A program made the translations under genes and the position numbers. From Nitrosomonadales bacterium (lineage in GTDB: Bacteria > Pseudomonadota > Gammaproteobacteria > Burkholderiales > Gallionellaceae), in contig JACRAT010000029.1 in assembly GCA_016234685.1 (NCBI GenBank), forward strand, positions 1-64,000: 64,000 nt of DNA, in the 5' to 3' direction. This document shows, in pieces, positions 43,283 through 60,018 of the stretch. The notes beneath the pieces were generated by a model that saw only the letters and a list, made by a program, of their open reading frames with translations, was not told the DNA's origin and made no database searches. Within the stretch, counting starts at the first letter, position 1. Each line of letters opens with the position of its first letter.

Positions 43283-43300
43283 GCTGGAAATGTTTCCAGC
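43283..43300. promoter_or_regulatory. Palindrome GCTGGAAA-TG-TTTCCAGC
   Basis: Perfect 8-bp arms; upstream of leftward late operon; related copies at 54279 and 60001. Confidence 0.6.
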
Positions 43301-43471
43301 CGGGCGATGCAGAGCAGTCCAGAGTGGAATGTGGTGGTGACTTAAGTGGAGATCGTTATGTTTGGATACTGGAGAAATCTCTCGGGGGATGAGAAACGGT
43401 ATTGGGTGCTGTATGTTCTGAAGTGCGCCGTGGCCGGAGCGGCACTGGTGCTTATTTTGATGCAAGCCAAG

Positions 43472-43777
43472 TTAGAAGCGCACCAACGCAAGTCCCAAGT
43501 AGCCCCTCCATGCAGCAAAGTGGGAAGCTCGCACCTGAGCCGACATCAACCTGCGCTGCCACTCATGTTCGGCAAGAATGAACTGCGCGCTCTCGGGTGG
43601 ATAGGGGCTTTGCCACTTGGCTAAATCCTTGTCTGAAAGCTTGGAGAGCGCCGAACGATCAACCTGCTGATAGTCCTCATCCAGTTCGGCTTGAATTGCC
43701 GCCTGACGGTTCTTCTCCCTGAACTTTATTTCACGCGCTCGAAGCGATTCGGAGATTCTGTCCAAAAAGTCGGTCAT
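43472..43777 (-). CDS. Hypothetical protein
   Basis: 101 aa, charged, protein-like composition. Confidence 0.5.
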   Translation of the reverse strand: MTDFLDRISESLRAREIKFREKNRQAAIQAELDEDYQQVDRSALSKLSDKDLAKWQSPYPPESAQFILAEHEWQRRLMSAQVRASHFAAWRGYLGLALVRF

Positions 43778-43792
43778 GGCGGGATCATTTAG

Positions 43793-44359
43793 TCACTGGT
43801 CTTTCGGGAGATTCACGGGGGCCGCTGAAAACACATAAGCCTTATCCGCTGACGATAGGGCCAGTGAGTAGTTGTTTCCGTTCAGGATATAGCTGTGCAT
43901 CTGGTCTGCCGTGGTGGTTGCCGAGCCAAATAGCGTCACAACTTGCGGGCCGATGGCTGTTTTATCAATCGTTGGGTTGAGAGATTGAATCGTCAGGGAA
44001 ATCAGCAGCGGTATATTCATTGCGGCTTTCATTTGCGCAAGGTTGTCACGGCCTGATACGGTTTGAATAATTGTGATGGAGCGAACTGAGTGATCCTTCT
44101 CGTTAATGACCCCAACAAGGATTGAGTTGTTGTTGAACTGATGATTGAGGTATAGAAACCCGTCTGAGCTATCCTTCTTTGTAAGTTGAGCGTTCTGTAT
44201 TAGGAAGTCGCTTTGCTTGGAATTGAGATTGTTGACGAACTGCTCAATCGTCATTCCCAAGGTATAGGTTGGCTTTTCGACAACGGCAGGCTTTTCTTCT
44301 TTGCAGCCAAGCAGGGTAGCAATCAGCAGTATAGCTACCAGATTTGTGATTATTCGCAC
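43793..44359 (-). CDS. Putative lipoprotein (possible lysogenic-conversion gene)
   Basis: MRIITNLVAILLIATLLGCKEEK lipobox signal peptide. Confidence 0.65.
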   Translation of the reverse strand: MRIITNLVAILLIATLLGCKEEKPAVVEKPTYTLGMTIEQFVNNLNSKQSDFLIQNAQLTKKDSSDGFLYLNHQFNNNSILVGVINEKDHSVRSITIIQTVSGRDNLAQMKAAMNIPLLISLTIQSLNPTIDKTAIGPQVVTLFGSATTTADQMHSYILNGNNYSLALSSADKAYVFSAAPVNLPKDQ

Positions 44360-44486
44360 TACTCATCCCCCTTTGAAGTTTCCTCCATGATGCTGCCCGA
44401 CGATGGATTGAATGTACATATACCTTTTTGCCTATGCAGTTAGGCCTATTCATTTGCGGTGGGTTTTGCGCTAGGCTGCGCGCGGG

Positions 44487-44831
44487 CTAAGCCCTTTTCT
44501 TTTGCCGTTGCGCGAATAGAGCACCCGCTGCCGCAATGTGTTGCTTCTCTTCCTGCGGGCAATGTCGGTAGTTATCCAGTAGGGCCGCCTCATCTGGGGC
44601 TAGGGTTGGCGCAGGTGCAATGCCGCGCTGGCCAGTTAGGATGTACAACACGTCCGCGCCAGCGGAAGCAATGGCGACCAAGTAATCAGAGTCCGGGGCG
44701 CGTCCGTTCCCTTCATATAGCCCCTGAGTTTTCTTAGTTACCCCTCCGACCTCGCCAAGTGCTGTTTGGCTCAAACCAAGGCGCAGTCGTTCTTCTTTTA
44801 GCCTCTCCCCGAGAGAAACCGAGTGGTTCAT
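44487..44831 (-). CDS. XRE-family HTH regulator (putative prophage repressor)
   Basis: LGERLKEERLRLGLSQTALGEVGGVTKKTQGLYEGNGRAPDSDYL. Confidence 0.85.
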   Translation of the reverse strand: MNHSVSLGERLKEERLRLGLSQTALGEVGGVTKKTQGLYEGNGRAPDSDYLVAIASAGADVLYILTGQRGIAPAPTLAPDEAALLDNYRHCPQEEKQHIAAAGALFAQRQKKRA

Positions 44832-44842
44832 TTAAATACCTC

Positions 44843-44871
44843 TTGACAGGTAACCGTTCGGTTACCATAAT
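44843..44871 (+). promoter_or_regulatory. Early promoter TTGACA-N17-CATAAT with embedded operator GGTAACCG-TT-CGGTTACC
   Basis: -35 at 44843-44848, palindrome 44849-44866, -10 at 44866-44871. Confidence 0.75.
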
Positions 44872-44910
44872 TCGCACATCCACCCACAAATAAAAACGGA
44901 CTTCCACAAA

Positions 44911-45135
44911 ATGAAGCCTAAAAAAGACACCGATCAAGCTAAAGCCAAGCTACGCAAGAAGCGTGCTGAGCTTGCCGCCCTAGGCGTCAATCTGCGCGAG
45001 CTGTGCGCAGCGAACAACATCAATTACCAATCCGCCCGCGATCTGCTGTGTGGCAAATCCAAGGGCCGTCGCGGCGATGCTCATCGCGCCGCCGTCTTTC
45101 TCGGCCTCAAGCCCAACCCAGAGCAACGCACTTAG
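44911..45135 (+). CDS. Small DNA-binding protein (Ner-like position)
   Basis: LGVNLRELCAANNINYQSARDLLCGKSKGRRGDAHRAAVFLGL; first gene divergent from repressor. Confidence 0.7.
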   Translation: MKPKKDTDQAKAKLRKKRAELAALGVNLRELCAANNINYQSARDLLCGKSKGRRGDAHRAAVFLGLKPNPEQRT

Positions 45136-45159
45136 GAGCCATCATGAAACGCAAAACCA

Positions 45160-45429
45160 TCAATCGTCATCGCCAAGCTGCACGCTCAAAACAATTTTCG
45201 TCTCGCCAACAAGCGCTGCTGCGCGACTGTCTCCGCTTGCTTCGAGCAATTCGGCCATTCTGCCCAGCCCTGCAATCAGCCCCTTGCGCGGGAAATCTGG
45301 CTGCTCATTCAGCTCATATATCAATGCAATGTACATGCCCCTCAGCGCTGCGAACTCACTCGATACCTGAGAACCCATACCGCCTTGCCCGGCTTGCGCA
45401 GAAGAACCGCGCTTGATGCTTTTGTCCAT
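45160..45429 (-). CDS. Hypothetical protein, antisense to the early operon
   Basis: MDKSIKRGSSAQAGQGGMGS...; strong SD cggagggcatcATG. Confidence 0.55.
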   Translation of the reverse strand: MDKSIKRGSSAQAGQGGMGSQVSSEFAALRGMYIALIYELNEQPDFPRKGLIAGLGRMAELLEASGDSRAAALVGETKIVLSVQLGDDD

Positions 45430-45503
45430 GATGCCCTCCGAAATGAAATCGACGAGCACATTTTACGCAGCAGGCAGCGATTTTAGCGCGTCCGAACAAG
45501 TAT

Positions 45504-46016
45504 TTGTTTGGAACAGCATGGCAGGAGGCCGTTTCTGAAATGCGGCGGAATTGGAAACGCATCCAGCCCACCAGTCTGCGCGATGCGCTGCGGCTGTGCA
45601 AGGACTACGCGCTGGAGAAGAAGCGCTACACGGTGGAGCGCATCGCCGACCTGATGGATGTCAGCGCCGACCTGCTCTACAAGTGGCTGTCCACAGGCCG
45701 GATGCCCGCATCGTCCATCCCCGCCTACGAGCACATCTGCGGCATCAACTTCGCCACCCGCTGGCTGGCCACCAGCGCAGGGTTTCTGGTGATCGCCGCC
45801 CCCACCGGGCGCGATGCCACTGCCGCCGACATGCAGGTGCTGCAAGAGCTGCTGCACACCGCAGTCGGCAACCTGCTCAAGTTTTACGACCGGCGCGCGG
45901 ATGCAGATACCGCCTTGGCTGGCATCCAGCAGGCGATGGAGGGGCTGGCATGGCACAAGGTCAACGTCGAGAAAAACGATCAACCCGAATTTGAGTTTAC
46001 AGAGGAGCAAGCATGA
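45504..46016 (+). CDS. Phage early HTH protein
   Basis: RYTVERIADLMDVSADLLYKWLSTGRMPASSIPAYEHICG. Confidence 0.65.
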   Translation: MFGTAWQEAVSEMRRNWKRIQPTSLRDALRLCKDYALEKKRYTVERIADLMDVSADLLYKWLSTGRMPASSIPAYEHICGINFATRWLATSAGFLVIAAPTGRDATAADMQVLQELLHTAVGNLLKFYDRRADADTALAGIQQAMEGLAWHKVNVEKNDQPEFEFTEEQA

Positions 46017-46082
46017 AGCCGGAAGAAACAATTTTTTGCCCTGCCTGGGCAAACCTAGTCCAGGCAGAGCTGAGCGAGGCAA

Positions 46083-46349
46083 TCAGTGTAGGAGCCGATC
46101 CATCAGCGCATTGTATTCAGGGGCGGCTTGGCTACCGCGAATGCCTGCTGCGATCTGATTCAAAACAAGCTGAAGCACCTCGCGGTTGGCAACGGATTCA
46201 GGGATTTTTTCTGCGGTGGTATCGAAGCTTTGCGCAAGGTCGCCGGGATTGATTTTATGTTCACGGCAAATCGTATTGGACAGGTGCACAAGAGCAAGTT
46301 GCTGGCCAGCGAACAGCGCATAGATACGTTTCAACTGTTTATCAGTCAT
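46083..46349 (-). CDS. Hypothetical protein, antisense to the early operon
   Basis: MTDKQLKRIYALFAGQQLALVHLSNTICREHKINPG...; SD ctggagaatccccATG. Confidence 0.5.
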   Translation of the reverse strand: MTDKQLKRIYALFAGQQLALVHLSNTICREHKINPGDLAQSFDTTAEKIPESVANREVLQLVLNQIAAGIRGSQAAPEYNALMDRLLH

Positions 46350-46444
46350 GGGGATTCTCCAGTGGTTAGAAAAGGGGCGCTTGCGAGGCGCGCATCCATT
46401 TTATCCAACGGCAGTCATCCCCACCCAACAATAGAGGAGCAAGC

Positions 46445-47443
46445 ATGAGCAACATCGTGACAACTGAATCGAGTGGGGTAGCCCAGATCGCCGTGCGCTT
46501 TGGTGTGGATAGCGACGATCTCGGTGTGCTGGCGCGCATCGGATCGGATTCCATCAACCGAGCCATGTTCGAGATCACCCGTGCCGGGCTGGCATTTCTG
46601 CGGGCGCAGGAGCTGCTGTCGCTGGGAGATTTTGGGAATTCAGTCGTGTGCGAACGTTCGCACACGGACGATGACGGTGGCTTTATCGAGTGGATTGAGA
46701 AAAACGGCATGGCAAAAGAGCGCGTCTACGAATCCATGCGCATCGCCAAATTCGTGATGCGCCTGCCCGCTGGCCAGGTGGATGAGGTGCTGGCGCTGGG
46801 TAAGGTAAAAGTGATGCTGCTGGCCTCGCTGCCGCAAGAAGTGATCGACGAGGCAGCGCAGACCGGCGAAGGCTTGATCGGCAAGGCTGAGCTGATGACG
46901 GTACGCCAGCTCAAGGATGAGGTGGCTGCGCTCAAGCGCCGTGAGAAGAACTATGAAGCCGAGCTGGAGGTGGCGCAGCGCAAGGTTGAGCGACTCTCTG
47001 AAGCCAAGCAGCGCTTGACTCAATTCGAGTTGCGCACGGAAGAGCTGCGCGCCGAGTGCATGGCGCTGCAACTGGAAGCTGAGCTGCCTTTGAATGCCCT
47101 GCATAAGCTGTTTGAAGAAGAGTTGAACGATGTTTCAGGATCACCCGAAGCACGCCTGCGGCTGGAGCAAGTGTGGATCGTGGCGCACAACGCGGTAGCC
47201 ACTGGGCTGGACATGCTGGAGAAGCTGCACGAGCTGGATCGCCAAGAGCAGCTAGGCTTGCCATCGCGCCAAATGAGCCAGCACATCCTGCTGCCCAGCG
47301 AGGCCGCCGACTGGCTGCTGAACAAACCGTTGATCGAGAACCGCTACGAAGGGCAGCGCGCCCTGCGCGAAGACAAGCGCGTGCAAGACACGCCGCGTCG
47401 TGGTCGCCCTAAAGGCTCTAAAAACAAGGCGGACGGAGAGTAA
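46445..47443 (+). CDS. Phage early protein with coiled coil and C-terminal AT-hook-like tail
   Basis: 332 aa; C-term RRGRPKGSKNK. Confidence 0.65.
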   Translation: MSNIVTTESSGVAQIAVRFGVDSDDLGVLARIGSDSINRAMFEITRAGLAFLRAQELLSLGDFGNSVVCERSHTDDDGGFIEWIEKNGMAKERVYESMRIAKFVMRLPAGQVDEVLALGKVKVMLLASLPQEVIDEAAQTGEGLIGKAELMTVRQLKDEVAALKRREKNYEAELEVAQRKVERLSEAKQRLTQFELRTEELRAECMALQLEAELPLNALHKLFEEELNDVSGSPEARLRLEQVWIVAHNAVATGLDMLEKLHELDRQEQLGLPSRQMSQHILLPSEAADWLLNKPLIENRYEGQRALREDKRVQDTPRRGRPKGSKNKADGE

Positions 47444-47446
47444 GCC

Positions 47447-49108
47447 ATGAAAGGGAGCGCGATGATCAAGCGCATCGACCCGCCATCTGGCGGTCAGGTG
47501 GCAGTGATGCCTGCGGCCAAGGTGCTGGCGCTGCGTAGCCGCGACCCTTGGCGCGAGGCGACCGAGCGCGCTCGGCAAGTCGCTCAGCACCGCGAGACCG
47601 TCGTGAGCTTCATCCTGCAACAGGTCAATCAGGGGGTGTCGCAGAACAATGCCGTCTCGCTGCTGATGTCGCGCGCTGAGGCTGGCCAGCTGCCTGCGCA
47701 TGTCAAGGTGGCGCTGGCGGGGGTGGCCAAGGCTGGGCGCGCCACGCCTTCCCGTTCGGCGATCTGTGAGTGGTGCGCTCAACACCGCGAAGGCGGTGTC
47801 ACCGCGCTGCTGCCAGATCACAAGGGGCGCGTGGTTGAGGCTGCCGGATGGTGGGGGCCTGCGCTGGAGTATTACAACAACCCCGGCAAGCCGGATATGT
47901 CGGCGGTTCATCGCCGACTGGTGGAGGTGGATGGCTTCGCCGTCACCTATGACCAGGTGCGCGGATACCTGACTGGCGTGCCCGCCATGTTTGGCCGCAA
48001 CAGCCCAGCCCGTATCGGCAAAAACCTCTACCGACTCACCGAAAAGGCCTACATCCGCCGCTCGACCGAAAACGCCTTGCCCGGCGATGTGTATGTCGCT
48101 GACGGTTATCGCGCTGACGTGTACCTGGCGCACCCAGTCACCGGCGACATCTGGCGGCCAGAACTGACGGTCGCGCTGGATATGCGCAGCCGGATCTGTG
48201 TCGGCTGGCGCGCTGATGAGCATGAAGGCACTTATGCCGTGCAGAACATGTGGGCGGAGTGTTTTGCCCGCTGGGGGCATGTGCCGCCCTTCATCTACGT
48301 GGATAACGGCTCGGGCTACAAGAACAAGCTGATGAGCGATGACCTGACCGGCTTCTACGCCCGTGCGGGTGTGCAACAGATCATCCACGCCATACCCGGA
48401 AATCCACACGGCAAGGGCTGGGTGGAGCGGTTCTTCAGGATCGTGAAGGATGACTTCCTCAAGCTGTGGATGCCGCAGTTCTACTGCGGCACTGACATGG
48501 CCGACGAGGTGCTGAACAAGACGGTGAGTGAGATCAAGGCCGGTCGGCTGGCATTGCCGACGCTGGCTCAATTCACCGAAGCTTTCAATGCGTGGCTGTT
48601 GCGCTATGCCCATCGCCCGCACCCAGAGGACAAGAGCATCACCCGCGCATCGTTGTGGTCGCAACTGGTTCCTATCCCGCCGCACGCTGGCGTGACTGAA
48701 CTCAAGCGTCAGGCTGTCACGCTCACCGTTCGCCGCGCCGTAATCAAGCATGGCAAGCGCGAATACATGCACCCCGATCTGCACGCCTTCAATGGGCAGC
48801 GTGTGCTGCTGGAATACGACCTGATGGATAACGCCGTGGCGGTGATACGCACGCTGGATGGACGCTGGATCTGCGACGCACACCTGATTGCCGCCATTGA
48901 TGCCATTGCACCGAGCCGCATGGACGATAAGCGCGTCGCCCGCGCCGACGATGCCATCAAGCGGTTGGAACAGAAGATCGACGAGCAGAAGGCGCGCGCC
49001 GGTCGGGTGTTCGACGCCGAGGCGCTGGCCGAGGGTGCGCTGCCTGCGCTGGAGGGGGAAGCGCAGCGTATTGAGCACAACGATTTCAGTTTGGACGATT
49101 TTAACTAA
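47447..49108 (+). CDS. Mu-type transposase A (DDE)
   Basis: VYVADGYRADVYLAHPVTGDIWRPELTVALDMRSR, FIYVDNGSGYKNK, GNPHGKGWVERFFR. Confidence 0.92.
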   Translation: MKGSAMIKRIDPPSGGQVAVMPAAKVLALRSRDPWREATERARQVAQHRETVVSFILQQVNQGVSQNNAVSLLMSRAEAGQLPAHVKVALAGVAKAGRATPSRSAICEWCAQHREGGVTALLPDHKGRVVEAAGWWGPALEYYNNPGKPDMSAVHRRLVEVDGFAVTYDQVRGYLTGVPAMFGRNSPARIGKNLYRLTEKAYIRRSTENALPGDVYVADGYRADVYLAHPVTGDIWRPELTVALDMRSRICVGWRADEHEGTYAVQNMWAECFARWGHVPPFIYVDNGSGYKNKLMSDDLTGFYARAGVQQIIHAIPGNPHGKGWVERFFRIVKDDFLKLWMPQFYCGTDMADEVLNKTVSEIKAGRLALPTLAQFTEAFNAWLLRYAHRPHPEDKSITRASLWSQLVPIPPHAGVTELKRQAVTLTVRRAVIKHGKREYMHPDLHAFNGQRVLLEYDLMDNAVAVIRTLDGRWICDAHLIAAIDAIAPSRMDDKRVARADDAIKRLEQKIDEQKARAGRVFDAEALAEGALPALEGEAQRIEHNDFSLDDFN

Positions 49109-49119
49109 GGGAGAACAGC

Positions 49120-50064
49120 ATGACGCAGAAGACTTATCCACCGCACTACACCTCAGCCGACATCGCGCTGATCGAGCGTATCCACGTCTGGATGGCTGCG
49201 CACAGATATACACAAGCGGCGCTGGCCAGACTGTCTCGTGTGGCAGCCAGCACGCTCAATCAGATCCTCAAGGGAGCGTATATCACCAGCCCGAGCAAGC
49301 AGCTTGCTTCGGTGGAGTCAGCCATGCGCCACGCGGAGGAGACCACCTTGGATGCAGTCGTTCCGGTCGAGACCAGCGTGTTCAAGCTGGGGCATACCTG
49401 CTGCGCGATGGCACGGCGCAATCGCAACTTCGCCGTGTTCAGCGGGTTCGTCGGCACCGGCAAGACCTTCGCCATCAAGCACTACGCTGCCGCGCACAGC
49501 AACACGCATTTGATCGAGGCCACGCCGACGATGACCCCGCAGAGCCTGATCCGCGACCTATCGGTGCGCATTGCCGGATACAGCGGAAAGGGCAGCATCG
49601 CCAGCCGTTTTGATGCGGTAGTAGATGCGCTGCGCAACACCGACAGCCTGCTGATCGTGGACGAGGCCGAAACGCTGACCCCGCACCAGCTCCACACCCT
49701 GCGCCGCCTGCGCGACCTCGCCAACGTCGGCATCTTGCTGGTTGGCACGGAGCATTTGTCCGGCCTGATCAAGCCAGCACATGGGCAATTCGATCAGATC
49801 CGCAGCCGCACCGGATTCTGGCCAGAGACGGTGCGCCAGATCACCCAAGACGATGCCGCCGCGCTGGTGCAGGCCGGATTCGGCACGGAAGAGGTGCCGG
49901 ATGAGGTGGTGCAACGCCTCTACCAATACTGCAAGGGAAGCGCACGGATGCTGGTCGAGGGGCTGATCGCCTCGATGCAGCAGATGCGCAAGGGCCGTGC
50001 ATTAAGCCGCGACATGGTTGATTACGTCGCAAAACAGGCGCTGTGCCTGCAATCGTTAGCCTAA
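49120..50064 (+). CDS. MuB-like transposition AAA ATPase
   Basis: FSGFVGTGKTFAIKHYAA Walker A, SLLIVDEAETLTPHQL Walker B, N-terminal HTH. Confidence 0.92.
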   Translation: MTQKTYPPHYTSADIALIERIHVWMAAHRYTQAALARLSRVAASTLNQILKGAYITSPSKQLASVESAMRHAEETTLDAVVPVETSVFKLGHTCCAMARRNRNFAVFSGFVGTGKTFAIKHYAAAHSNTHLIEATPTMTPQSLIRDLSVRIAGYSGKGSIASRFDAVVDALRNTDSLLIVDEAETLTPHQLHTLRRLRDLANVGILLVGTEHLSGLIKPAHGQFDQIRSRTGFWPETVRQITQDDAAALVQAGFGTEEVPDEVVQRLYQYCKGSARMLVEGLIASMQQMRKGRALSRDMVDYVAKQALCLQSLA

Positions 50065-50074
50065 GGAGAGCCTC

Positions 50075-50248
50075 GTGAGAAGAGATACGAATGAAGTGAA
50101 AGTCCGCAACTACCGCATCGTCGCGTTCGTCCTGGCTGTTCTGCTGGCTTACTCAGTGGTCGGCAACAACGACCGACGCGTGCATGAAGCGGAGTCTTGT
50201 GGCACTCACCTCAAATACTCCAGCGCCCTGCTGGCCAGCCGGGAGTGA
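50075..50248 (+). CDS. Small membrane protein (57 aa, GTG start)
   Basis: Not in ORF track; AAGGAG SD, one TM (YRIVAFVLAVLLAYSVV). Confidence 0.5.
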   Translation: MRRDTNEVKVRNYRIVAFVLAVLLAYSVVGNNDRRVHEAESCGTHLKYSSALLASRE

Positions 50249-50251
50249 GCC

Positions 50252-50476
50252 ATGTGCGGAACAGTCAACCATCTGAGCGACGACGAGCAATTCGACCTAG
50301 CCAGCGACCTCGCCCATCTTGCCAGCAGGCTTGACGATGCCCGCGTGCATCTGCCCAAGCCCTACCGAGACGACGCGCTCGAAGTGGTCGAAGCGCTGCA
50401 TCGCCGCGCGGCTGAGCTTGGCGGTGATCGTGCCTGCGAGATCTACGGCAACGAAGAAGAGGAACTGCACCTGTGA
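50252..50476 (+). CDS. Hypothetical phage protein
   Basis: 74 aa, packed in early operon. Confidence 0.55.
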   Translation: MCGTVNHLSDDEQFDLASDLAHLASRLDDARVHLPKPYRDDALEVVEALHRRAAELGGDRACEIYGNEEEELHL

Positions 50477-51030
50477 AAACCTCCTGCCCAGCCTGCGGAG
50501 CCACCGCCAGCCTTGATGTGCTGCTCGGCAACGAAGGCGCACGCGAGGCGGTGATGGCGGCGCTGGCCATGCCTGCGCCCATCGGCAAGCTGCTGGTGCA
50601 GTACCTCGGCCTGTTTCGCCCGGCATCCCGCAACCTCTCGTTCGACCGCGTGGCCACGTTGCTCAACGAGCTGCTGCCGATGATTTCTGAAGCCAAGATC
50701 GAGCGAAAAGGATGCACCTACTCGGCTCCACAGGATTACTGGCGCATGGCTATAGAGCTCATGCTGGCCAAACCCAAATCTGGCCCGGACTCACTCGACC
50801 TGCCGCTCAGGTCTCACGGATACCTGCTGTCCGTTATAGCAGGATATTCAAAAAAGGCCGAGGGCGAGCGGGAGGCCAAGACCGAAGCACAGCGCGCCGG
50901 TCGCACACCGGTCGGCAGTGTGGCCGCGCATCAACCCGTAGCACCCGCTAAAACTGAGCAAAAGAGAACATTCATCCCAGAACCGGTGAAGGCCGAGCTG
51001 GGGCGCTTGAAAACCAAAACCCACCCATAG
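50473..51030 (+). CDS. Hypothetical phage protein with N-terminal CPAC motif
   Basis: 185 aa, overlaps upstream stop. Confidence 0.6.
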   Translation: MKTSCPACGATASLDVLLGNEGAREAVMAALAMPAPIGKLLVQYLGLFRPASRNLSFDRVATLLNELLPMISEAKIERKGCTYSAPQDYWRMAIELMLAKPKSGPDSLDLPLRSHGYLLSVIAGYSKKAEGEREAKTEAQRAGRTPVGSVAAHQPVAPAKTEQKRTFIPEPVKAELGRLKTKTHP

Positions 51031-51036
51031 GAGACC

Positions 51037-51919: not shown

Positions 51920-51985
51920 CCTGTGGTCTGGATCACCACCTGTAGCAGATTAACGATTTACCCAACCAACGAAAGGAGCAACACC

Positions 51986-52270: not shown

Positions 52271-52332
52271 TCCCTCGCCTCCAGCCCGTTGAATCAGCGG
52301 GCTGCGGGAGATGATTTTAGTCAGGAGAAGAA

Positions 52333-52527
52333 ATGCTTAAAACGACTGCAAAGACGGCGCAACTGGAACTGCACGATACATGCAGCAACCATGTCTGGAA
52401 GTTCGAGATTGATTACCTTGAGCCTAGCGTAGTTGTCAGCAAAAACGGGATTCGCAAAACAACTATTGGGCGGGTGGAATACCCAATAACTACAGAATTT
52501 TTAATGAGTCTGACGAAAGGGATATGA
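52333..52527 (+). CDS. Hypothetical protein
   Basis: 64 aa with SD (aggagaag). Confidence 0.5.
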   Translation: MLKTTAKTAQLELHDTCSNHVWKFEIDYLEPSVVVSKNGIRKTTIGRVEYPITTEFLMSLTKGI

Positions 52528-52528
52528 C

Positions 52529-53230
52529 ATGAGCGATTCCAGAAAAGCGATATTGGAGAAGATCAAGAAGTGCTTGGCGCTGTCCGCCAGCAGCAATGAG
52601 CACGAGGCTGAGGCAGCCTTGCGTCAGGCTCGCGCGCTGATGAAAAAGCACAGCATCGATGATCAGGACGTGCTGGCCTACGAGGCCAGTGAGCAGCACG
52701 CAAAGGCCGGGGCGCAATCCAGCCCACCCGGATGGGAGCAATCCTTGGCGAACAAAGTATCTGCCGCGTTCGGATGCCGGGTGATATTTTCCTCGGGGTG
52801 GGCGATGAGCCAAGCCAAGTGGAAATTCATCGGTTGCGGCGCATCGCCAGAGGTGGCTTCCTATGCGTTCCAGGTGCTGCATCGCCAATGCAAACGCGCC
52901 CGTGCAGAATTCATTGCCGACAAGTTGAAGCGCTGCAAGCTGGCCACCAAAACGCGCCGGGCCGATCTGTTCTGTCAGGGCTGGCTGCACGCTGTGTCAG
53001 GCAAGATCGCCGCGCTGATCAACAGTGAACGGGAAGAGGATGCCATCGAGGCCTATGTCGCCAAGAACTACCCAAGCCTGAGCGATATGAAGCGGCGTGA
53101 CCGGAATGCCGGACGCAACTTGAGAGACCGTGAATACAACGACATTGGTGCGGGTTATTCCTCCGGCAAGAATGCAGATCTCAATCGCGGTGTTGATGGC
53201 ACAGAGCAGTTTAAGTTGGGGGCAGCATGA
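52529..53230 (+). CDS. DUF2786-like protein
   Basis: ILEKIKKCLALSASSNEHEAEAALRQARALMKKHSID. Confidence 0.85.
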   Translation: MSDSRKAILEKIKKCLALSASSNEHEAEAALRQARALMKKHSIDDQDVLAYEASEQHAKAGAQSSPPGWEQSLANKVSAAFGCRVIFSSGWAMSQAKWKFIGCGASPEVASYAFQVLHRQCKRARAEFIADKLKRCKLATKTRRADLFCQGWLHAVSGKIAALINSEREEDAIEAYVAKNYPSLSDMKRRDRNAGRNLRDREYNDIGAGYSSGKNADLNRGVDGTEQFKLGAA

Positions 53231-53742
53231 GCGACCTCACCAAATACTACCTCCAGCTCGTCGGCATCGCCAAGGGCTGGGCGATGAAGAACCTGCCGGG
53301 CTGGAGCGACGAGATCCACCGTGACTTATTGCAGCGCCACGGTGCGATGGTGGTCGGCGGGCGCATCTCGGCCAGCAGCTTGAATGTTCCGCAGCTCGAT
53401 GCAGTGCTGTGCGATTACGAGCGGCGCGGCTGGAGTCGGCAGAAGCGCATCTTCAGCGGCGGCGGGGATGCCCAAAAAGTGCCTGAGCGCATTGCCATGA
53501 TGGTGCGGATGTGGGGCAAGCTGGGCAAAGCAGGCAAGGTGGAAAAAGCCACCCGCCCGGCGCTGCTGGCCTTCTGCGCGCGGCAGACTGGGCGTGACGT
53601 GCCGAATCTGGATAGCCTTTCTGTGGCCGAGTCGCAGAAGATCATCGAAGCGATGAAGGGATGGTTGGCACGGGACGCTGCGCGCCCCTCCCTCTCCCCA
53701 ACCCTCTCCCGTGGGGAGAGGGAGCAAGCGCGAAAGGCGTAA
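53227..53742 (+). CDS. GemA-like regulatory protein (Mu gp16 family)
   Basis: LTKYYLQLVGIAKGWAMKNLPGWSDEIHRDLLQRHG. Confidence 0.85.
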   Translation: MSDLTKYYLQLVGIAKGWAMKNLPGWSDEIHRDLLQRHGAMVVGGRISASSLNVPQLDAVLCDYERRGWSRQKRIFSGGGDAQKVPERIAMMVRMWGKLGKAGKVEKATRPALLAFCARQTGRDVPNLDSLSVAESQKIIEAMKGWLARDAARPSLSPTLSRGEREQARKA

Positions 53743-53746
53743 ACCC

Positions 53747-54148
53747 ATGACGAACCACTGGCCGGTGGTCGATGCCGAGCTGCTGCGCACCCTGCCGCCG
53801 GTGCTGGGTGCGGTGGTGCGGGCGCTGGGCTTTGGGCGTGCCAAAGAGTTCCTGGTCGAACGCGGCGGGGTCAATGTCAGCATCCCCAAGCACCGTAGCG
53901 CTGGCCTTGGTCTGAGCGACGAGGAACTGGCCAGACTGCGCGAAATGCTTGCCCCGCACATGGACGCTGCCGACCGGGTGTGGATGCCCAAACCCGATAA
54001 GCTGTTCATTCGGGTGCGCGACGAACAGATCCGCCGTGAGAAGCATCGCTACAGCATCACCGCTCAGGCTCGACAGCATAATCTCTCCAGTCGCCATATC
54101 CAGAATGTGCGCCGCGAGGGGGATGATGCGCAGCTGGACTTGTTCTAG
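53747..54148 (+). CDS. Mor-like middle/late transcription activator
   Basis: LGFGRAKEFLVERGGVNVSIPKHR plus C-terminal HTH TAQARQHNLSSRHIQNVRREG. Confidence 0.85.
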   Translation: MTNHWPVVDAELLRTLPPVLGAVVRALGFGRAKEFLVERGGVNVSIPKHRSAGLGLSDEELARLREMLAPHMDAADRVWMPKPDKLFIRVRDEQIRREKHRYSITAQARQHNLSSRHIQNVRREGDDAQLDLF

Positions 54149-54278
54149 CCAGCACGCATACGTTTAAAAATCACCACGCGCATTTGAAATGCCAGCGATC
54201 TGCCAAAATCAACCCATCGCACCACTCGAACACACTAAGCCCTCAAAGCGCGTTTAAATCGGTTTCGCTCCATCCTCG

Positions 54279-54298
54279 GGCGGGAAACATTTCCCGCC
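54279..54298. promoter_or_regulatory. Palindrome GGCGGGAAA-CA-TTTCCCGCC
   Basis: Perfect 9-bp arms, in the gap between mor-like gene and head operon. Confidence 0.65.
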
Positions 54299-54350
54299 GT
54301 GTTTCTCCTCCCCTCAAGCGGCATGATGCTCTCCATCAACAGGAGCCTCC

Positions 54351-55364
54351 ATGCCGAACGCCAATCAACCCTCTGCCAACTTCGCCGCCCTCACCTTTGA
54401 GCTGGGCGCGGGCGGTGATGCGGTCACGACCGAGGCACATTTGCTGCCGGTGGGGCCGTTTCGGTCGAGCGACATTCGCCCAGTCGAGTGCGCAGCGTGG
54501 CAGTTGGATGCCTCCATCGCGGCGCGAGTGATAGCGCGGGCAGCCAATCGCAAGACGGACACGCTGATCGACTATGAGCACCAGAGCCTGCGCTCGGAGG
54601 CCAACGGCCAGAAGGTGCTGGCAGCGGGCTGGATTCCTAACACGCTGGAGTGGCGTGAAGGCAAGGGCTTGTACGCCATCAACATTGGCTGGACGGCGCA
54701 GGCGCGCCGCGAGATCGCCGACAAGCAGTATCGCTACATCAGCACGGTCTTCTATTACGACGGAATCACCGGCGAGGTGCTGGAGATCATTTCTGTTGCC
54801 CTGACCAATACCCCCGGAATCGACGGCCTTGACGCGCTGGCAGCGATGGCGCGGGCGGCCTTGTCGCGGGGAGAGCTTTCCGATTTTTCAACCACAGGAG
54901 ACGCCGACATGGCACTTACTGACCAGCAGGCAGCTGCGCTCACCATCGAGCGTGATGGCCTAAAGACCAATGTGGCGGCTCTGACCGCCGAGCGTGATGG
55001 CCTGAAGACGCAGGTTGCGGCGCTCACCTCTGAGCGTGATGACCTGAAAACCAAGGTGAACGCAATTGAGGCAGAAAAAGTGCAAGCCGCGCTGAAAGCC
55101 GAAAAATCCAAGTGCGAAGAGATGATTCAGGCTGCGCTGACCGGCGGGGTCTTGACTCCGGCTGAGGAGGGTTATGCCCGCAAGAAGACTCTTGCTGACT
55201 TGACCGAGTACCTAGACACGAAAAAGCCGCTGGCACTACTGAACAAGCAGGCTGGCGGCAAGGGTGGCGCGGGCGAACATGGCCTGACGCAGGAGGAACT
55301 GGCGATGTGCACCAAGATGAATGTCAAGCCGGAAGAGTTCGCCAAGAACAAAGCCAAATCCTGA
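54351..55364 (+). CDS. Phage protease/scaffold (Mu gpI-like, possible internal scaffold start at 54909)
   Basis: LLPVGPFRSSDIRPVECAAWQLDASIAARVIARAANRKTDTLIDYEHQSL. Confidence 0.9.
   Translation: MPNANQPSANFAALTFELGAGGDAVTTEAHLLPVGPFRSSDIRPVECAAWQLDASIAARVIARAANRKTDTLIDYEHQSLRSEANGQKVLAAGWIPNTLEWREGKGLYAINIGWTAQARREIADKQYRYISTVFYYDGITGEVLEIISVALTNTPGIDGLDALAAMARAALSRGELSDFSTTGDADMALTDQQAAALTIERDGLKTNVAALTAERDGLKTQVAALTSERDDLKTKVNAIEAEKVQAALKAEKSKCEEMIQAALTGGVLTPAEEGYARKKTLADLTEYLDTKKPLALLNKQAGGKGGAGEHGLTQEELAMCTKMNVKPEEFAKNKAKS
54942..55067 (+). repeat. Three tandem 42-nt repeats in the scaffold region
   Basis: TIERDGLKTNVAAL / TAERDGLKTQVAAL / TSERDDLKTKVNAI. Confidence 0.85.
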
Positions 55365-55393
55365 CTTGAAACTTAACAAACTGGAGAAGATTC

Positions 55394-56308
55394 ATGCCTA
55401 TTACCGCCGCTCAACTTGCAGCACTGCATACCACGCTGGTCACACGTTTTAACGCCGGTCTCGCTGCCGCGCCGAATCACTGGAATCAGATTGCCAAGCC
55501 GATTTCCAGCAATGGCAAGTCGAACACCTACGCTTGGCTCTCTCAATTCCCGGCTTTCCGCGAATGGGTCGGTGCGCGCCAGCACAAAAAAATGTCTGAA
55601 ACGGCGTTCACGGTGGTGAATCGCAAGTTTGAAAACACGGTTGACGTTCAGCGCACTGATCTGGAAGACGACAATTTTGGTCATTACGGCGACATTGCCG
55701 AAAGCTACGGCCAGTCCGTCATGGATCTCCAGAACGAGCTGGTCTTTCAGGCATTGCGTGATGGGTTCGCGCAGGTTTGCTACGACGGTCAGTACTTCTT
55801 CGACACCGATCATCCGGTTGCGCCGAGTGAAGACGGCACCGGCGTGCCAGTACTGGTGAGCAATGTGCAAGCAGGTGTACTGGAACCCTGGGTATTGCTG
55901 TGCACCGAACGCGCTGCGCGGCCTCTGTACTTGCAGGAGCGCATCAAGCCTCAGTTTGAGGCGGTGACCTCTGCTCAGAATCAGAATGTATTCGATCTGG
56001 ACGCCTACAGCTACGGCGGTCGCTGGCGCGGAGCGGTGGCCTACGGCTTCTGGCAATGCGCATTCGGCTCGCGCGCAGCGCTGACCGTTGACAATTTCAA
56101 TGCCGCCTACAAGGCGATGGAAGAAATGAACGGTGATGGCAATCGTCGCTTGGGCATCACGCCAGACATCCTCGTGTGCGGCCCGGAAAATCGTGCGGCA
56201 GCGGAAGCGCTGCTGAAGGCTGCTCAAAACGCCAACGGCGCGTCGAATACGAACTTCAACAAGGTGAAGTTGCTGGTGTCGCCGTTCATGTGCTCACCGC
56301 TGGTCTGA
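55394..56308 (+). CDS. Mu-like major head subunit (gpT)
   Basis: LHTTLVTRFNAGLAAAPNHWNQIAKPISSNGKSNTYAWLSQFPAFREWVG. Confidence 0.92.
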   Translation: MPITAAQLAALHTTLVTRFNAGLAAAPNHWNQIAKPISSNGKSNTYAWLSQFPAFREWVGARQHKKMSETAFTVVNRKFENTVDVQRTDLEDDNFGHYGDIAESYGQSVMDLQNELVFQALRDGFAQVCYDGQYFFDTDHPVAPSEDGTGVPVLVSNVQAGVLEPWVLLCTERAARPLYLQERIKPQFEAVTSAQNQNVFDLDAYSYGGRWRGAVAYGFWQCAFGSRAALTVDNFNAAYKAMEEMNGDGNRRLGITPDILVCGPENRAAAEALLKAAQNANGASNTNFNKVKLLVSPFMCSPLV

Positions 56309-56331
56309 TCTAACAACTTAAGGAGAACGTG

Positions 56332-56712
56332 ATGGCAAATAAGGTATTTTTTGTGCGCGTCAATGCAAAAACCGGTGAGGGCAAGTTTTTTCGCTGCGGC
56401 TTGGAGTTTTCTCGCGAATGGCGTGAAGTAGAGGCGGATGAAGCGACGGCCAATCGCCTGCGTGAAGAGCAGATGCTGGAGGTGTCTGATGTCAGTCCGA
56501 GTGCCTCTGATTCCGCCCCTTCGGTTCCGACCGACCCGGCAGGGCGTGTCGCTGCGATTAAGGATGTCATCGCCTCGCTGGACAAGAGCAACGCTGATCT
56601 TTGGCTTGGCAGCGGTGCGCCGAAGGTGTCTGCCATTGAGGCGGTGACCGGCTGGACGCTATCTGGCGCAGAGCGTGACGCAGCGTGGTCTGACTCTCAG
56701 GCTGCTCAGTAG
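56332..56712 (+). CDS. HI1506-like phage protein
   Basis: FFVRVNAKTGEGKFFRCGLEFSREWREVEADE, after gpT. Confidence 0.7.
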   Translation: MANKVFFVRVNAKTGEGKFFRCGLEFSREWREVEADEATANRLREEQMLEVSDVSPSASDSAPSVPTDPAGRVAAIKDVIASLDKSNADLWLGSGAPKVSAIEAVTGWTLSGAERDAAWSDSQAAQ

Positions 56713-56717
56713 GCATC

Positions 56718-57209
56718 ATGGCCTTCGCTACTCGCTCTGACCTGTTGGCGCGCAGCAATGCGCGTCGGCTGTTTCAACTGGCGGTGCCTGCTGACGTGCA
56801 GATGCCGCCCGATGACGCCCTGAGAGTGGCGATCACCGGAGGTGACCTGACGGCGCTGTCCGGCGAGGATCGAGCCTCCGTCGAGCTGGCGCTGGCGGCC
56901 ATTGATCAGGCTTTGGCCGATGCCGAGCAGTTGATCTTGAGCTACCGCATTCCCGTCACTGCCAGTAGCCCGCTGATCTCCCGGCTGTGCGCGACTGTCG
57001 CGATGTTCTACCTGCAAGGTGATGAGCGGATGGTGGACGAGGTGAACAAGGCCTATGAAGCCGCAGTAGCTACACTGAAATCACACGTCCGAGGTGAGAT
57101 CAATCTGCTGCCAGAAAGTATAGCCGAGGCGGCGCTGCCGGAAGATCAGGTGATTTTCATCAGCTCACCGCGCCGGTATGGCGGCTTGGCACCGGATGGT
57201 GGCTGGTGA
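56718..57209 (+). CDS. DUF1320-like protein (Mu gp36-like)
   Basis: MAFATRSDLLARSNARRLFQL...ALAAIDQALADAEQLILSYRIPV. Confidence 0.85.
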   Translation: MAFATRSDLLARSNARRLFQLAVPADVQMPPDDALRVAITGGDLTALSGEDRASVELALAAIDQALADAEQLILSYRIPVTASSPLISRLCATVAMFYLQGDERMVDEVNKAYEAAVATLKSHVRGEINLLPESIAEAALPEDQVIFISSPRRYGGLAPDGGW

Positions 57210-57691
57210 TGGTTTCGCTACATCCAATCATTGTGATGCTGGCCACCAAGCCAGCGTGGTTCGCCGGAAACTGGTTTCGCAAGGTGGCCGGAGCATCTGA
57301 GTACGCGCAAATCAAGCCTGAAGCCCTGCCACTACCTGCTGCATGGGTGGTGCGCAGCTCAGACAAGGGGGAGCCGATCGGCGTCCGTCTGGATCTGGAC
57401 ACGCCTGAGTTCGACGTGGTGATCGCAGTCTCGAATGCGCGCAGTCATACGCCGGGCGACACCGATGAGCAACTTCTCAAATATCGACAGGCAGTGTACC
57501 GCTTGCTGCGTGGCGAAGAGGGTGCGCCCGACACAAAGCCCATCACCTGGCACGGCGGGCGAGTGATCGAGTACACCGATGGAGACCTGTACTGGGCAGA
57601 CAGGTACAGTTTTCAGGCAGTTATTGACAACCACTTGCCAGATCCCGCCGCCCATTTGGATGGCATAACGAAAATAGGAGGTAATCCATGA
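57206..57691 (+). CDS. Mu gp37-like protein
   Basis: Position between gp36-like and sheath genes. Confidence 0.75.
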   Translation: MMVSLHPIIVMLATKPAWFAGNWFRKVAGASEYAQIKPEALPLPAAWVVRSSDKGEPIGVRLDLDTPEFDVVIAVSNARSHTPGDTDEQLLKYRQAVYRLLRGEEGAPDTKPITWHGGRVIEYTDGDLYWADRYSFQAVIDNHLPDPAAHLDGITKIGGNP

Positions 57692-59178
57692 TCTCGAATC
57701 CACAAGTTCCCAACGCGCTGCGTTATCCGGGCGCGTATATCGCCATCGACGGCTCACAGGCCGGGCTGGGTGGGGACATTCCCGCCGTCTTGCTGGTCGG
57801 TCAGAAGCTGGCCACGGGCACGGCCCCTGTGGCTGAGATTACTCGTGTTGCCAGCGTGCAGGATGCGATCAACAAGGCGGGAGCTGGCTCTATGCTGGCA
57901 CAAATGGCCGCGCGCTACCGTGCCGTCGATCAGGCGCTGGATCTGTACATGCTGCCTTATGCGGATAATCCGGCTGGCGTGGCTGCGACAGGTTCGATCA
58001 CTCTCGCCACACCGGTAGCGGGAGCGTCGGCAGGCACGCTGGTGCTGTATATCGCCGGGCGTCCGGTCAGTGTCGGCATCAGCGCCGGGATGACCGCAGC
58101 TCAGGCTGCAACTGCAATCGTCACCGCGATCCGCGCAGTAGGTGCGGATATTCCGGTGGTGGTTGCGGTTGATGCCGTCGTCCCGGAAACCGTTGTGCTG
58201 ACAGCCCGTCACAAGGGTACCTGCGGCAACAACATCGACTTGCGGCTGAATCTGTATGGCGAGGAGAAACCAGCAGGACTCACGGTGTCGATTGCCGCAA
58301 TGGCTGGCGGGACGGGTGATCCAGCCCCCTCAATCGTCGAGGGGGTGGGAATCGACAACATGCTTGACGGTCGCTGGTATCGCTATATCGCGCTTGGTAT
58401 GAACGATGCTGCGACCTTGGCAGCATGGCATGTGGAAAGCCAGGATCGCTACTCTACGGCCAATCAGGCCGGGATGCGGATATTTACGGCGCATCGAGGT
58501 AATTTCACCACGGCGGCGGCTTTTGGCGAGACCAAGAACTACGAGCATATCTCCATGCTGAGCTTGGGTATCAATCCGACCAGCACATGGGAGGCTGCCG
58601 CCATCGTATGTGCTGCCGCTGCGCCGCGTTTGTACAACAACCCGGTGCAGTCTCTCGAAGGCACTCCACTGCCGGGCATGATCGGCCAGAAATATCACTT
58701 CTGGTCTGATGCCAACAGCCTGCTGTTCAAGGGTATGAGCGTGATGCAGGCCGCCCGTGATGGTTCGTGCAGTATCAAGCGACTGGTTTCGATGTACCGC
58801 TTCCGTCCTGATGGCAGCACGGATGATGCATTCCTGGACATCAACACTGCCGAGGTGATGGAGCGCATTCGCTATGAACAGCGCATCAGTTCGATTCAGC
58901 GTTTCACGGGGTCGGCAGCGGCGAAAAGCAATGAGGGCTATCGTCCCGGCCTGCGCATCACCACCGTGGAAGATGTGCGCGCTCATTTGCTGAGCCTGTA
59001 CAAGAACAAGCTGATGCAGGAGTTTGGCTGGGTGCAGAACTACGAGTACTACAAATCCACCCTGCTTGTGGAGCAAGACCCGACCAATCCAAGCCGGTTC
59101 AACTTCGCCGATCAGCCGGTGCTGTTGTCGCCGTACTACATCCTTGCGGGTGTCGCCCAGTTCCGCAAGGCCGTTTAA
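57688..59178 (+). CDS. Phage tail sheath protein (Mu gpL-like)
   Basis: GAYIAIDGSQAGLGGDIPAVLLVGQK and C-terminal sheath region. Confidence 0.92.
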   Translation: MISNPQVPNALRYPGAYIAIDGSQAGLGGDIPAVLLVGQKLATGTAPVAEITRVASVQDAINKAGAGSMLAQMAARYRAVDQALDLYMLPYADNPAGVAATGSITLATPVAGASAGTLVLYIAGRPVSVGISAGMTAAQAATAIVTAIRAVGADIPVVVAVDAVVPETVVLTARHKGTCGNNIDLRLNLYGEEKPAGLTVSIAAMAGGTGDPAPSIVEGVGIDNMLDGRWYRYIALGMNDAATLAAWHVESQDRYSTANQAGMRIFTAHRGNFTTAAAFGETKNYEHISMLSLGINPTSTWEAAAIVCAAAAPRLYNNPVQSLEGTPLPGMIGQKYHFWSDANSLLFKGMSVMQAARDGSCSIKRLVSMYRFRPDGSTDDAFLDINTAEVMERIRYEQRISSIQRFTGSAAAKSNEGYRPGLRITTVEDVRAHLLSLYKNKLMQEFGWVQNYEYYKSTLLVEQDPTNPSRFNFADQPVLLSPYYILAGVAQFRKAV

Positions 59179-59202
59179 TGAGCATTTGAAAGGGGTTTGA
59201 AC

Positions 59203-59565
59203 ATGGCACAAATCAATAACATTCGGACGGTCTCTGCCCCCTCGGTAGGAAAACTACCCTTGGCCGAGAAACCGGGAACTTTTACGCCCAGCGGTTTCAA
59301 GCGTGAGCATAAGCCGGGGCGGCTGGCCGCTGATGGCGGCTATACCGAGACATCCTCTCCGGCGAAGCTGGAGCTGAGCCTTAATCTGCACGGTGGTTTT
59401 GATGTTCAGGCGCTGAATAACATCAAGGACGAGGATGTCACCGTGCGTTTGGCTGATGGCAGCGTACACCTGATGAGCATGGCTTTTGTGACAGAGCCTG
59501 TCCCCGTCGATGGGGGTGACAGCAAGATGACCATCATCTCCAATACCTCTGAAAAGATCGCGTAG
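59203..59565 (+). CDS. Phage tail tube protein (Mu gpM-like)
   Basis: GKLPLAEKPGTFTPSGFKREHKPG..., after sheath. Confidence 0.82.
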   Translation: MAQINNIRTVSAPSVGKLPLAEKPGTFTPSGFKREHKPGRLAADGGYTETSSPAKLELSLNLHGGFDVQALNNIKDEDVTVRLADGSVHLMSMAFVTEPVPVDGGDSKMTIISNTSEKIA

Positions 59566-59572
59566 GTGAATC

Positions 59573-59848
59573 ATGGCTAAGCTGATACTGAAACACCCGC
59601 TGACTCTGGGGAAGCTGACGGTCTCTGAGCTTAACTTCAGAGATTTCACCACGGCTGCCGACTACCTGTCTTTTGATCAGCGCGGCGGAGTAGCTCAGCG
59701 CATCGCGCTGATCGCCTCGCTGAGTGGCACTGACGAAGAGTTGGTCAAGCAGCTGCGCGGCGTCGATTATCGTGCTGCCGAAAAGATGGCCGATGCGATG
59801 ATCGAAGCAGACGCGACCGCATCGGTGGAGGACGCTGAAAAAAAGTAG
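59573..59848 (+). CDS. Phage tail assembly protein (Mu gp41-like), zero-frame product
   Basis: LTLGKLTVSELNFRDFTTAADYLSFDQRGGVAQRIALIASLSG. Confidence 0.85.
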   Translation: MAKLILKHPLTLGKLTVSELNFRDFTTAADYLSFDQRGGVAQRIALIASLSGTDEELVKQLRGVDYRAAEKMADAMIEADATASVEDAEKK

Positions 59849-59985
59849 CCAGAATCATCGCCGCCTGTGCTCTAGTTGCAAGGGGGATGCATCAGGATTT
59901 GCGGTATGTCGAATCGTTGCCGCTTCCCAAGCTGTTCATGTGGGCGCGAATCGCGGCGGCGATGGAAGGCAGGGCATTCGAATAA
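59839..59985 (+). CDS. -1 frameshift extension of tail assembly chaperone
   Basis: Slippery A AAA AAG at 59839-59845 just before the TAG; -1 frame reads VARIIAACALVARGMHQDLRYVESLPLPKLFMWARIAAAMEGRAFE*. Confidence 0.75.
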   Translation, partial: KKVARIIAACALVARGMHQDLRYVESLPLPKLFMWARIAAAMEGRAFE

Positions 59986-60000
59986 GACCTATCTCGGCCA

Positions 60001-60018
60001 GCGGGAAATGTTTCCAGC
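60001..60018. promoter_or_regulatory. Palindrome GCGGGAAA-TG-TTTCCAGC
   Basis: 7 of 8 arm positions pair; upstream of tape measure; third copy of the motif. Confidence 0.55.

What the first reader, a model, noticed from the sequence alone, without database searches (positions are those of the whole stretch)
43283..60018. A shared GGAAAYRTTTCC palindrome at three prophage intergenic sites
GCTGGAAATGTTTCCAGC (43283-43300), GGCGGGAAACATTTCCCGCC (54279-54298) and GCGGGAAATGTTTCCAGC (60001-60018) share a dyad. They lie in the gaps preceding the leftward late operon, the head operon and the tape measure gene. This suggests a phage regulon operator read by one factor, with the Mor-like protein (53747-54148) the leading candidate, synchronising the split late operons.
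Basis: partly seen in the sequence, partly recalled or inferred. Interest (0 to 1): 0.68.

Follow-up and report, generated by a model that had tools for sequence, protein, structure and literature searches.

The report
Phage late-gene switch with translation lock
A virus dormant in an iron-oxidising bacterium marks its four late-gene promoters with one shared DNA palindrome, most likely read by its own Mu-type activator protein, and at most of these promoters in its relatives the start of the message is also built so that only activator-driven transcripts should be translated.

Summary
GGAAAYRTTTCC occurs exactly at the three stated places (0.01 expected in the window). The whole 2.35-Mb genome holds only four copies, all in this Mu-like prophage. 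The fourth lies 1.6 kb past the window end, before a baseplate gene.

Related prophages conserve the same four sites (lysis, head, tape measure, baseplate; 14 of 14). Each is followed by exactly 27 bp and a sigma70 -10 hexamer (A-11 in 50/51 and T-7 in 49/51 non-redundant sites), with no conserved -35. This resembles the geometry of phage Mu Mor/C activator sites.

Viral contigs found by the DNA pattern alone carry the Mor-like gene (22 of 23 that are at least 20 kb; the exception has lost its early region). Wrong-spacer controls carry none (0 of 24). Direct binding is untested.

New here: in head, tape-measure and most lysis promoters, DNA from the -10 to +1 encodes the 5' arm of a covarying hairpin whose 3' arm holds the Shine-Dalgarno. 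Read-through mRNA would be locked, late-promoter mRNA unlocked, as in T4 gene e. In this window the lock is strong at the tape measure, weak at the head, absent at lysis. Component mechanisms are known; this pairing appears undescribed.

The parts
43283..43300 (-). Operator 1 (lys/packaging promoter). Transcribed leftward: GCTGGAAACATTTCCAGC
   Evidence: Exact match; promoter-profile score 35.2 on the - strand
43253..43258 (-). -10 hexamer TAAATT, 27 bp from the operator core; predicted +1 about 43246
   Evidence: Same spacing as in relatives
43259..43268 (-). Alternating CG tract (GCGCGCGCG) immediately upstream of the -10; function unknown
   Evidence: Sequence; recurs at most lys sites and several TMP sites of relatives
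34476..43061 (-). Leftward late operon: endolysin, phrog_756 DNA-binding protein, terminase large subunit, portal, minor head protein, neck protein (phrog_27533 at its left end)
   Evidence: PHROGs
53747..54148 (+). Mor/C-family late activator (133 aa), proposed reader of the operators
   Evidence: PHROG 836 late transcriptional activator E 5e-16; Pfam Mor in 21/26 family members, best 3.7e-12
54279..54298 (+). Operator 2 (head promoter) GGCGGGAAACATTTCCCGCC
   Evidence: Exact match; profile score 39.7
54322..54327 (+). -10 hexamer CATGAT, 27 bp from operator core; predicted +1 about 54334
54328..54346 (+). Weak hairpin GCTCT (54328-54332) / GGAGC (54342-54346): 5' arm upstream of +1, 3' arm holds the SD of the head protease
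   Evidence: 5-bp stem here, 6-10 bp in most relatives; SD unpaired probability near 0 in read-through RNA
54351..56308 (+). Head maturation protease and major head protein, first genes of the head operon
   Evidence: PHROGs 328 and 371
60001..60018 (+). Operator 3 (tape-measure promoter) GCGGGAAATGTTTCCAGC
   Evidence: Exact match; profile score 41.2
60043..60048 (+). -10 hexamer TAAGCT, 27 bp from operator core; predicted +1 about 60055
60044..60071 (+). 11-bp hairpin AAGCTCCAGTG (60044-60054) / CACTGGAGCTT (60061-60071): 5' arm overlaps the -10 and ends before +1, 3' arm holds the SD; U-run follows
60077..62488 (+). Tail tape measure protein gene. The fourth operator (contig 65556-65567, GGAAATGTTTCC + 27 bp + CACAAT) lies beyond the window, in the 3' end of a gp46-like gene before the baseplate (gp47-like) gene
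   Evidence: PHROG 794; fourth site

Best explanation
The palindrome is the operator of a Mu C-type late regulon. The Mor/C-family protein encoded at 53747-54148, the last gene of the rightward early block, binds as a dimer to GCKGGAAAYRTTTCCMGC centred near -45.5 of four sigma70 promoters that have a -10 but no -35. By contacting RNA polymerase it switches on the lysis/packaging, head, tape-measure and baseplate operons together. At three of the four promoter classes in this prophage family, the DNA from the -10 to +1 also encodes the 5' arm of a hairpin whose 3' arm contains the Shine-Dalgarno. Transcripts reading in from upstream fold and hide the start site (and at the tape-measure gene probably also terminate). 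Transcripts started at the activated late promoter lack the 5' arm and can be translated. Shown by sequence: sites, spacing, -10, conservation, co-occurrence with Mor, synonymous-site constraint, covarying hairpin arms. Inferred: direct Mor binding, activation, start points, translational effect. The confidence given is for the Mor/C regulon; for the hairpin lock I would put about 0.65.
For: Genome-wide restriction of the motif to the prophage. Rigid 27-bp spacing: 51 non-redundant sites not selected on the -10 have A-11 in 50 and T-7 in 49, and no conserved -35. In viral contigs the 27-bp spacer gives 44 stretches against 24 for seven other spacers together. Mor is found in 22 of 23 such contigs of at least 20 kb and in 0 of 24 control contigs; the exception lacks MuA, MuB, GemA, Mor, protease and half of the head gene. 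In head-protein-ascertained loci the 62 more distant ones (45% or less) have no site and no matching Mor apart from one weak hit, while 17 of the 18 closer ones have Mor on the contig. In L215 Mor is moved away from the head operon, yet the head site is kept. All 14 full prophages have the same four sites. Mor is the only transcription-factor gene in 14/14. The gp46-embedded site is frozen at synonymous positions: GGA 17/17 against all four Gly codons elsewhere in the same gene, TCC 17/17, AAT 17/17. Hairpin: stems of 8 bp or more exceed all 300 within-class arm swaps in all three classes, with compensatory pairs. Literature: Mu Mor dyad centred at -43.5 and C dyads in four late promoters (PMC4287176; PMC4461284); T4 gene e RBS lock (PMC3014915).
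Against: No binding or expression data. Mor and the sites share phage ancestry, so linkage is broken in few cases (L215, diverged G610). Pfam scores the window protein just under its cut-off (23.8 against 24.9 bits), and the fold search is weak (Mu C 9l0x and Mu Mor 1rr7 rank 4th and 6th but with E about 1). In this window the hairpin is strong only at the tape-measure gene, weak at head (5 bp) and absent at lys; it is absent at gp47 sites in all relatives. Late-start RNA frees the SD only partly in prediction (mean unpaired 0.33 against 0.00).
Confidence: 0.86

Rival explanations
1. The palindrome is a repressor operator, read by the XRE repressor (44487-44831) to keep late operons silent in the lysogen.
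For: Palindromes near promoters are often repressor operators; an XRE-type repressor is present.
Against: The XRE repressor is detected in only 8 of 14 motif-bearing prophages. The site lies upstream of where a -35 would be, and promoters without a -35 would not need repression. A different palindrome, GGTAACCGTTCGGTTACC at 44849-44866, sits between a TTGACA and a CATAAT beside the repressor gene and is a better candidate for the repressor operator.
Confidence: 0.05
2. Another conserved phage protein reads the site, for example the phrog_18998 protein (46445-47443) or the phrog_756 DNA-binding protein (40780-41274).
For: phrog_756-like is found in 14/14 and the phrog_18998-like protein in 13/14 motif-bearing prophages.
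Against: phrog_756 corresponds by position (next to the terminase large subunit) to Mu gp27, annotated small terminase, and sits in the late operon. phrog_18998 is an early gene of unknown function with no domain found in Pfam. Neither explains the Mor/C-like promoter geometry.
Confidence: 0.05
3. Structural or accidental: conserved only by recent common ancestry of the prophages, or a DNA-structure, gyrase or packaging site.
For: The phages are related and share most genes.
Against: Spacer bases between operator and -10 are largely randomised (information mostly under 0.5 bit) while operator bases reach 2 bits. Synonymous sites are frozen only at the operator and the -10. Four sites at exactly one spacing each precede an operon.
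Confidence: 0.02
4. The hairpins are only intrinsic terminators of the upstream operon, not translation locks (a rival to the second layer only, not to the Mor regulon).
For: Tape-measure hairpins are followed by runs of T.
Against: Head and most lys hairpins have no T-run, yet their 3' arm still holds the SD and the arms covary.
Confidence: 0.3

Closest known systems
Phage Mu C-dependent late promoters (Plys, PI, PP, Pmom)
   Same: Four late promoters switched on by one small Mor/C-family activator through a dyad upstream of the -35 region; lysis and protease/head operons are served in both (PMC4461284, PMC4287176).
   Different: Different operator sequence; four sites at lys, head, tape measure and gp47; lysis plus packaging genes run leftward as a separate operon; only one Mor/C-like gene is detectable in the window instead of Mor plus C; no mom-type promoter identified.
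Phage Mu Mor at the middle promoter Pm
   Same: Dyad centred at -43.5 and a -10 without a -35 (PMC4287176); here the centre is about -45.5 if the hexamer is -12 to -7.
   Different: Serves late operons, not a middle operon; start points not mapped.
T4 gene e / soc / 49 / I-TevI RBS-sequestering leaders
   Same: Upstream-initiated transcripts hide the SD; the late promoter lies in the DNA encoding the 5' arm, so late transcripts escape (gene e, PMC3014915).
   Different: Here a sigma70 -10 overlaps or abuts the anti-SD arm, the promoter appears to depend on a Mor/C-type activator, and the device recurs at three of four late operons across a prophage family rather than at scattered genes. Effect not measured.

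Membership tests
Mor/C transcription activator family (Pfam PF08765, PHROG 836) | Sequence match to the family | tested here: met
   PHROG 836 E 5.3e-16; 21 of 26 relatives match Pfam Mor at E 0.01 or better, best 3.7e-12; the window protein alone is 1.1 bits under Pfam's cut-off.
Mor/C transcription activator family (Pfam PF08765, PHROG 836) | Fold of Mu Mor / Mu C with C-terminal helix-turn-helix | tested here: inconclusive
   Model pLDDT 83 with two C-terminal helices; 9l0x (Mu C) and 1rr7 (Mu Mor) among the top six hits but E about 1; profile search ranks Mu C first at E 0.24.
Mu C-type late regulon | Dyad operator upstream of several late promoters | tested here: met
   Four operators before lys, head, tape-measure and baseplate genes in 14/14 prophages.
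Mu C-type late regulon | Fixed distance to the -10 and no functional -35 | tested here: met
   27 bp; A-11 50/51, T-7 49/51; no conserved -35; spacer-specific enrichment.
Mu C-type late regulon | Activator binds the dyad and is required for transcription | not testable with these tools
   Needs EMSA, footprinting and reporter assays.
T4 gene e-type read-through RBS lock | SD in the 3' arm of a hairpin whose 5' arm is upstream of the late start point | tested here: met
   Stems of 6 bp or more at 72 of 122 non-redundant profile-scan sites: tape measure 33/35, head 23/38, lys 16/32, gp47 0/17 (classes assigned by hexamer, so approximate). Start point inferred, not mapped. In this window: tape measure yes, head weak, lys no.
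T4 gene e-type read-through RBS lock | Arms covary | tested here: met
   Arm-swap permutations exceeded in each class at 8 bp or more; 3 of 7 consensus pairs with two-sided changes.
T4 gene e-type read-through RBS lock | Reduced translation of long transcripts | not testable with these tools
   Needs reporter fusions.

The most novel reading that the evidence does not exclude
A two-layer late-gene switch used regulon-wide: a single Mor/C-type activator sets one rigid promoter geometry at four operons, and the promoter's own -10 to +1 DNA serves as the anti-Shine-Dalgarno arm, so that only activator-started transcripts of head, tail and lysis genes can be translated while read-through from prophage or early transcription stays silent.
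Probability: 0.6. Interest if true: 0.72.

Novelty: new variant of a known kind. Interest (0 to 1): 0.62.

Why it matters
It gives an operator, promoter rule and candidate activator for a family of Mu-like prophages found in iron oxidisers and other bacteria, whose activator has no close relative in the searched phage records (only one hit, 29% identity). It predicts late operons directly from DNA. It also suggests that the T4-style translation lock, known from a few genes, is used systematically by transposable phages to keep lysis and virion genes silent in lysogens, which simple reporter fusions can test.

Tried and rejected
Repressor-operator reading: rejected on gene distribution and geometry. 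Host-factor reading: no copies of the motif in the rest of this genome assembly. Chance: 0.01 expected. Mere shared ancestry: contradicted by randomised spacers and frozen synonymous codons. A simple residue-to-operator code in the Mor recognition helix was looked for by eye and not found: variant operators (YGAAANNTTTCR) occur with near-identical C-terminal helices. Distant-Mor prophages in the same genus or family (L290-L292) have no profile hits, and no alternative motif was worked out. Literature searches for Mu-like late operators and for Ferriphaselus prophages found nothing on it. phmmer of the single protein against PDB found only unrelated hits. A phage-record search with the gp46-like protein found no match, so codon use in Mor-less homologues could not be compared. 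My notebook entry misstated the head-protein counts; the right figures are 18 close loci (17 with Mor on the contig, one fragment without) and 62 distant loci.
Full report
OBSERVATION. The three palindromes are at the stated coordinates. GGAAAYRTTTCC matches the window three times against 0.01 expected. The genome that holds the window (2.35 Mb, 43 contigs, about 88% complete) has four copies only, all in this Mu-like prophage; the fourth is 1.6 kb beyond the window, inside the 3' end of a gp46-like gene just before the baseplate gene. Two genomes of the same genus have four copies each, in clusters with the same spacing.

ANATOMY. Rightward early block: MuA and MuB transposition genes, GemA, then the Mor/C-like gene 53747-54148. 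Then come the head operon (protease 54351, major head protein), sheath, tube, tape measure 60077 and hub. Leftward: endolysin, phrog_756 DNA-binding protein, terminase, portal, minor head and neck proteins. The four sites precede the leftward operon, the head operon, the tape measure gene and the gp47-like gene.

PROMOTER RULE. Read in the direction of transcription, each site is followed by exactly 27 bp and a hexamer: TAAATT (lys), CATGAT (head), TAAGCT (tape measure), CACAAT (gp47). In 51 non-redundant sites collected through Mor or position, and not selected on the hexamer, the second hexamer base is A in 50 and the sixth is T in 49. These are the two key bases of a sigma70 -10. One clear misfit is a one-mismatch chance site in L058. 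Bases between operator and -10 carry little information, and no -35 is conserved. The core is extended to GCKGGAAAYRTTTCCMGC. If the hexamer is -12 to -7, the centre is at -45.5. Mu Mor binds a dyad centred at -43.5 at a promoter without a -35 (PMC4287176), and Mu C binds dyads in four late promoters (PMC4287176, PMC4461284).

INDEPENDENT ASCERTAINMENT. The pattern operator + 27 N + TAAGCT found 44 stretches in viral contigs; the same pattern with spacers 20 to 26, seven spacers together, found 24. The Mor profile was then found in 24 of 42 contigs with the 27-bp spacer, including 22 of the 23 that are at least 20 kb, and in none of the 24 control contigs. The single large exception has a deletion that removes MuA, MuB, GemA, Mor, the protease and half of the head gene.

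CONSERVATION. In 80 loci found through the major head protein, the 62 with head identity of 45% or less have no site (also none at profile score 20 or more) and no matching Mor apart from one weak hit. Of the 18 closer ones, 17 have Mor in the locus or elsewhere on the contig and one is a fragment. In L215 the Mor gene lies apart from the head operon, yet the head site is kept. Fourteen full prophages, this one included, each have the four sites at the same genes, with occasional one-base variants of the core. Of the window's regulators, only Mor occurs in all 14 comparison prophages; the XRE repressor occurs in 8 and the phrog_925 HTH protein in 5. More distant family members have related operators with the same 27 bp: GTGAAATGTTTCAC, GCGAAGTATTTCTCGC, GCGAAACATTTCAC, and CGAAACATTTCA in Methylotenera.

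CODING CONTROL. The gp47 site lies inside gp46 codons. Across 17 phages the operator Gly is always GGA, while two other invariant Gly codons in the same gene use all four forms. The operator Ser is always TCC, the Val/Ile codon always ends in T, and the Asn that supplies T-7 is always AAT. DNA-level selection therefore acts on both the operator and the -10.

SECOND LAYER. Directly at the -10 lies the 5' arm of an inverted repeat whose 3' arm carries the Shine-Dalgarno. In tape-measure and most lys sites the anti-SD CTCC starts at -8 and overlaps the hexamer; in head sites it starts at -5 to -3. For 72 sites with stems of 6 bp or more, predicted SD accessibility is 0.00 in read-through RNA and 0.33 in RNA starting at +1, higher in all 72. 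These 72 were chosen for having a stem, so the control that matters is arm swapping: exchanging arms among sites of the same class gives fewer long stems than observed in all 300 trials for each class at 8 bp or more: tape measure 30 against at most 28, lys 13 against at most 10, head 9 against at most 7. Consensus folding shows two-sided changes at 3 of 7 pairs. In the 14 prophages the stem is 7-13 bp at every tape-measure site, 7-15 bp at 12 lys sites, 4-10 bp at head sites, and absent at gp47 sites. In this window: tape measure 11 bp, head 5 bp, lys none. T4 gene e works this way: late promoters lie in the DNA encoding the 5' part of the inhibitory structure (PMC3014915). At the tape-measure gene the hairpin is followed by a T-run and may also terminate upstream transcripts.

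MECHANISM, shown and inferred. Shown: sites, spacing, -10, conservation, co-occurrence with Mor, arm covariation. Inferred: Mor dimer binding, recruitment or activation of sigma70 RNA polymerase, start points, and translation control. A plausible benefit is that the repressor gene is transcribed leftward toward the lysis operon (44487-44831 lies upstream of 43061 on the same strand), so a lock at lys in relatives would stop lysis genes being made from lysogenic transcripts.

MEMBERSHIP. The Mor-like protein is a divergent member of the Mor/C family (PHROG 836; Pfam Mor in 21 of 26 relatives; the window protein alone is just under Pfam's cut-off). The fold comparison puts Mu C (9l0x) and Mu Mor (1rr7) among the top six, but not significantly, so it is inconclusive.

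VERDICT. The kind of system (Mu-type late activator regulon) is known. The operator sequence, the single-activator four-promoter layout and the regulon-wide pairing with an RBS lock were not found described in the library searched.

Noticed in passing
window 44843-44871: TTGACA, 17-bp spacer containing the palindrome GGTAACCGTTCGGTTACC (44849-44866), then CATAAT: a likely early promoter with the prophage repressor's operator, beside the XRE repressor gene.
   Followed up: partly
window 43259-43268 and lys/TMP sites of relatives: An alternating GCGCGCGCG tract directly precedes the -10 at most lys promoters and several tape-measure promoters; it may be a DNA-structure element, function unknown.
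   Followed up: partly
contig C14 65556-65600 (L005 5556-5600): The fourth promoter is embedded in protein-coding sequence (gp46-like: GNVSSV...HNG), with operator and -10 frozen at synonymous positions.
   Followed up: yes
L048, L212, L219, L063-L065, L208: Variant operators (outer G-C replaced, e.g. CGAAACATTTCA; in L208 AGAATCATTTCC) with the same 27-bp spacing and diverged Mor proteins; no obvious recognition-helix residue explains the change.
   Followed up: partly
L316 1380-1500 and 8975-9065 (phage Mu): Mu's own lys and I leaders also show short inverted repeats near the -10 region and SD (CCTGA..TCAGG; TGCTC..GAGCA), so a similar lock may exist in Mu itself.
   Followed up: no
L288/L289 (IMGVR 3300028830_000308): Prophage remnant in which the early region (MuA to Mor), the protease and half of the head gene are missing, joining the head operon directly to the lys operon while late promoters remain.
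   Followed up: partly
window 53683-53730: A CCCTCTCCC..GGGAGAGGG inverted repeat overlaps the end of GemA, just before Mor.
   Followed up: no
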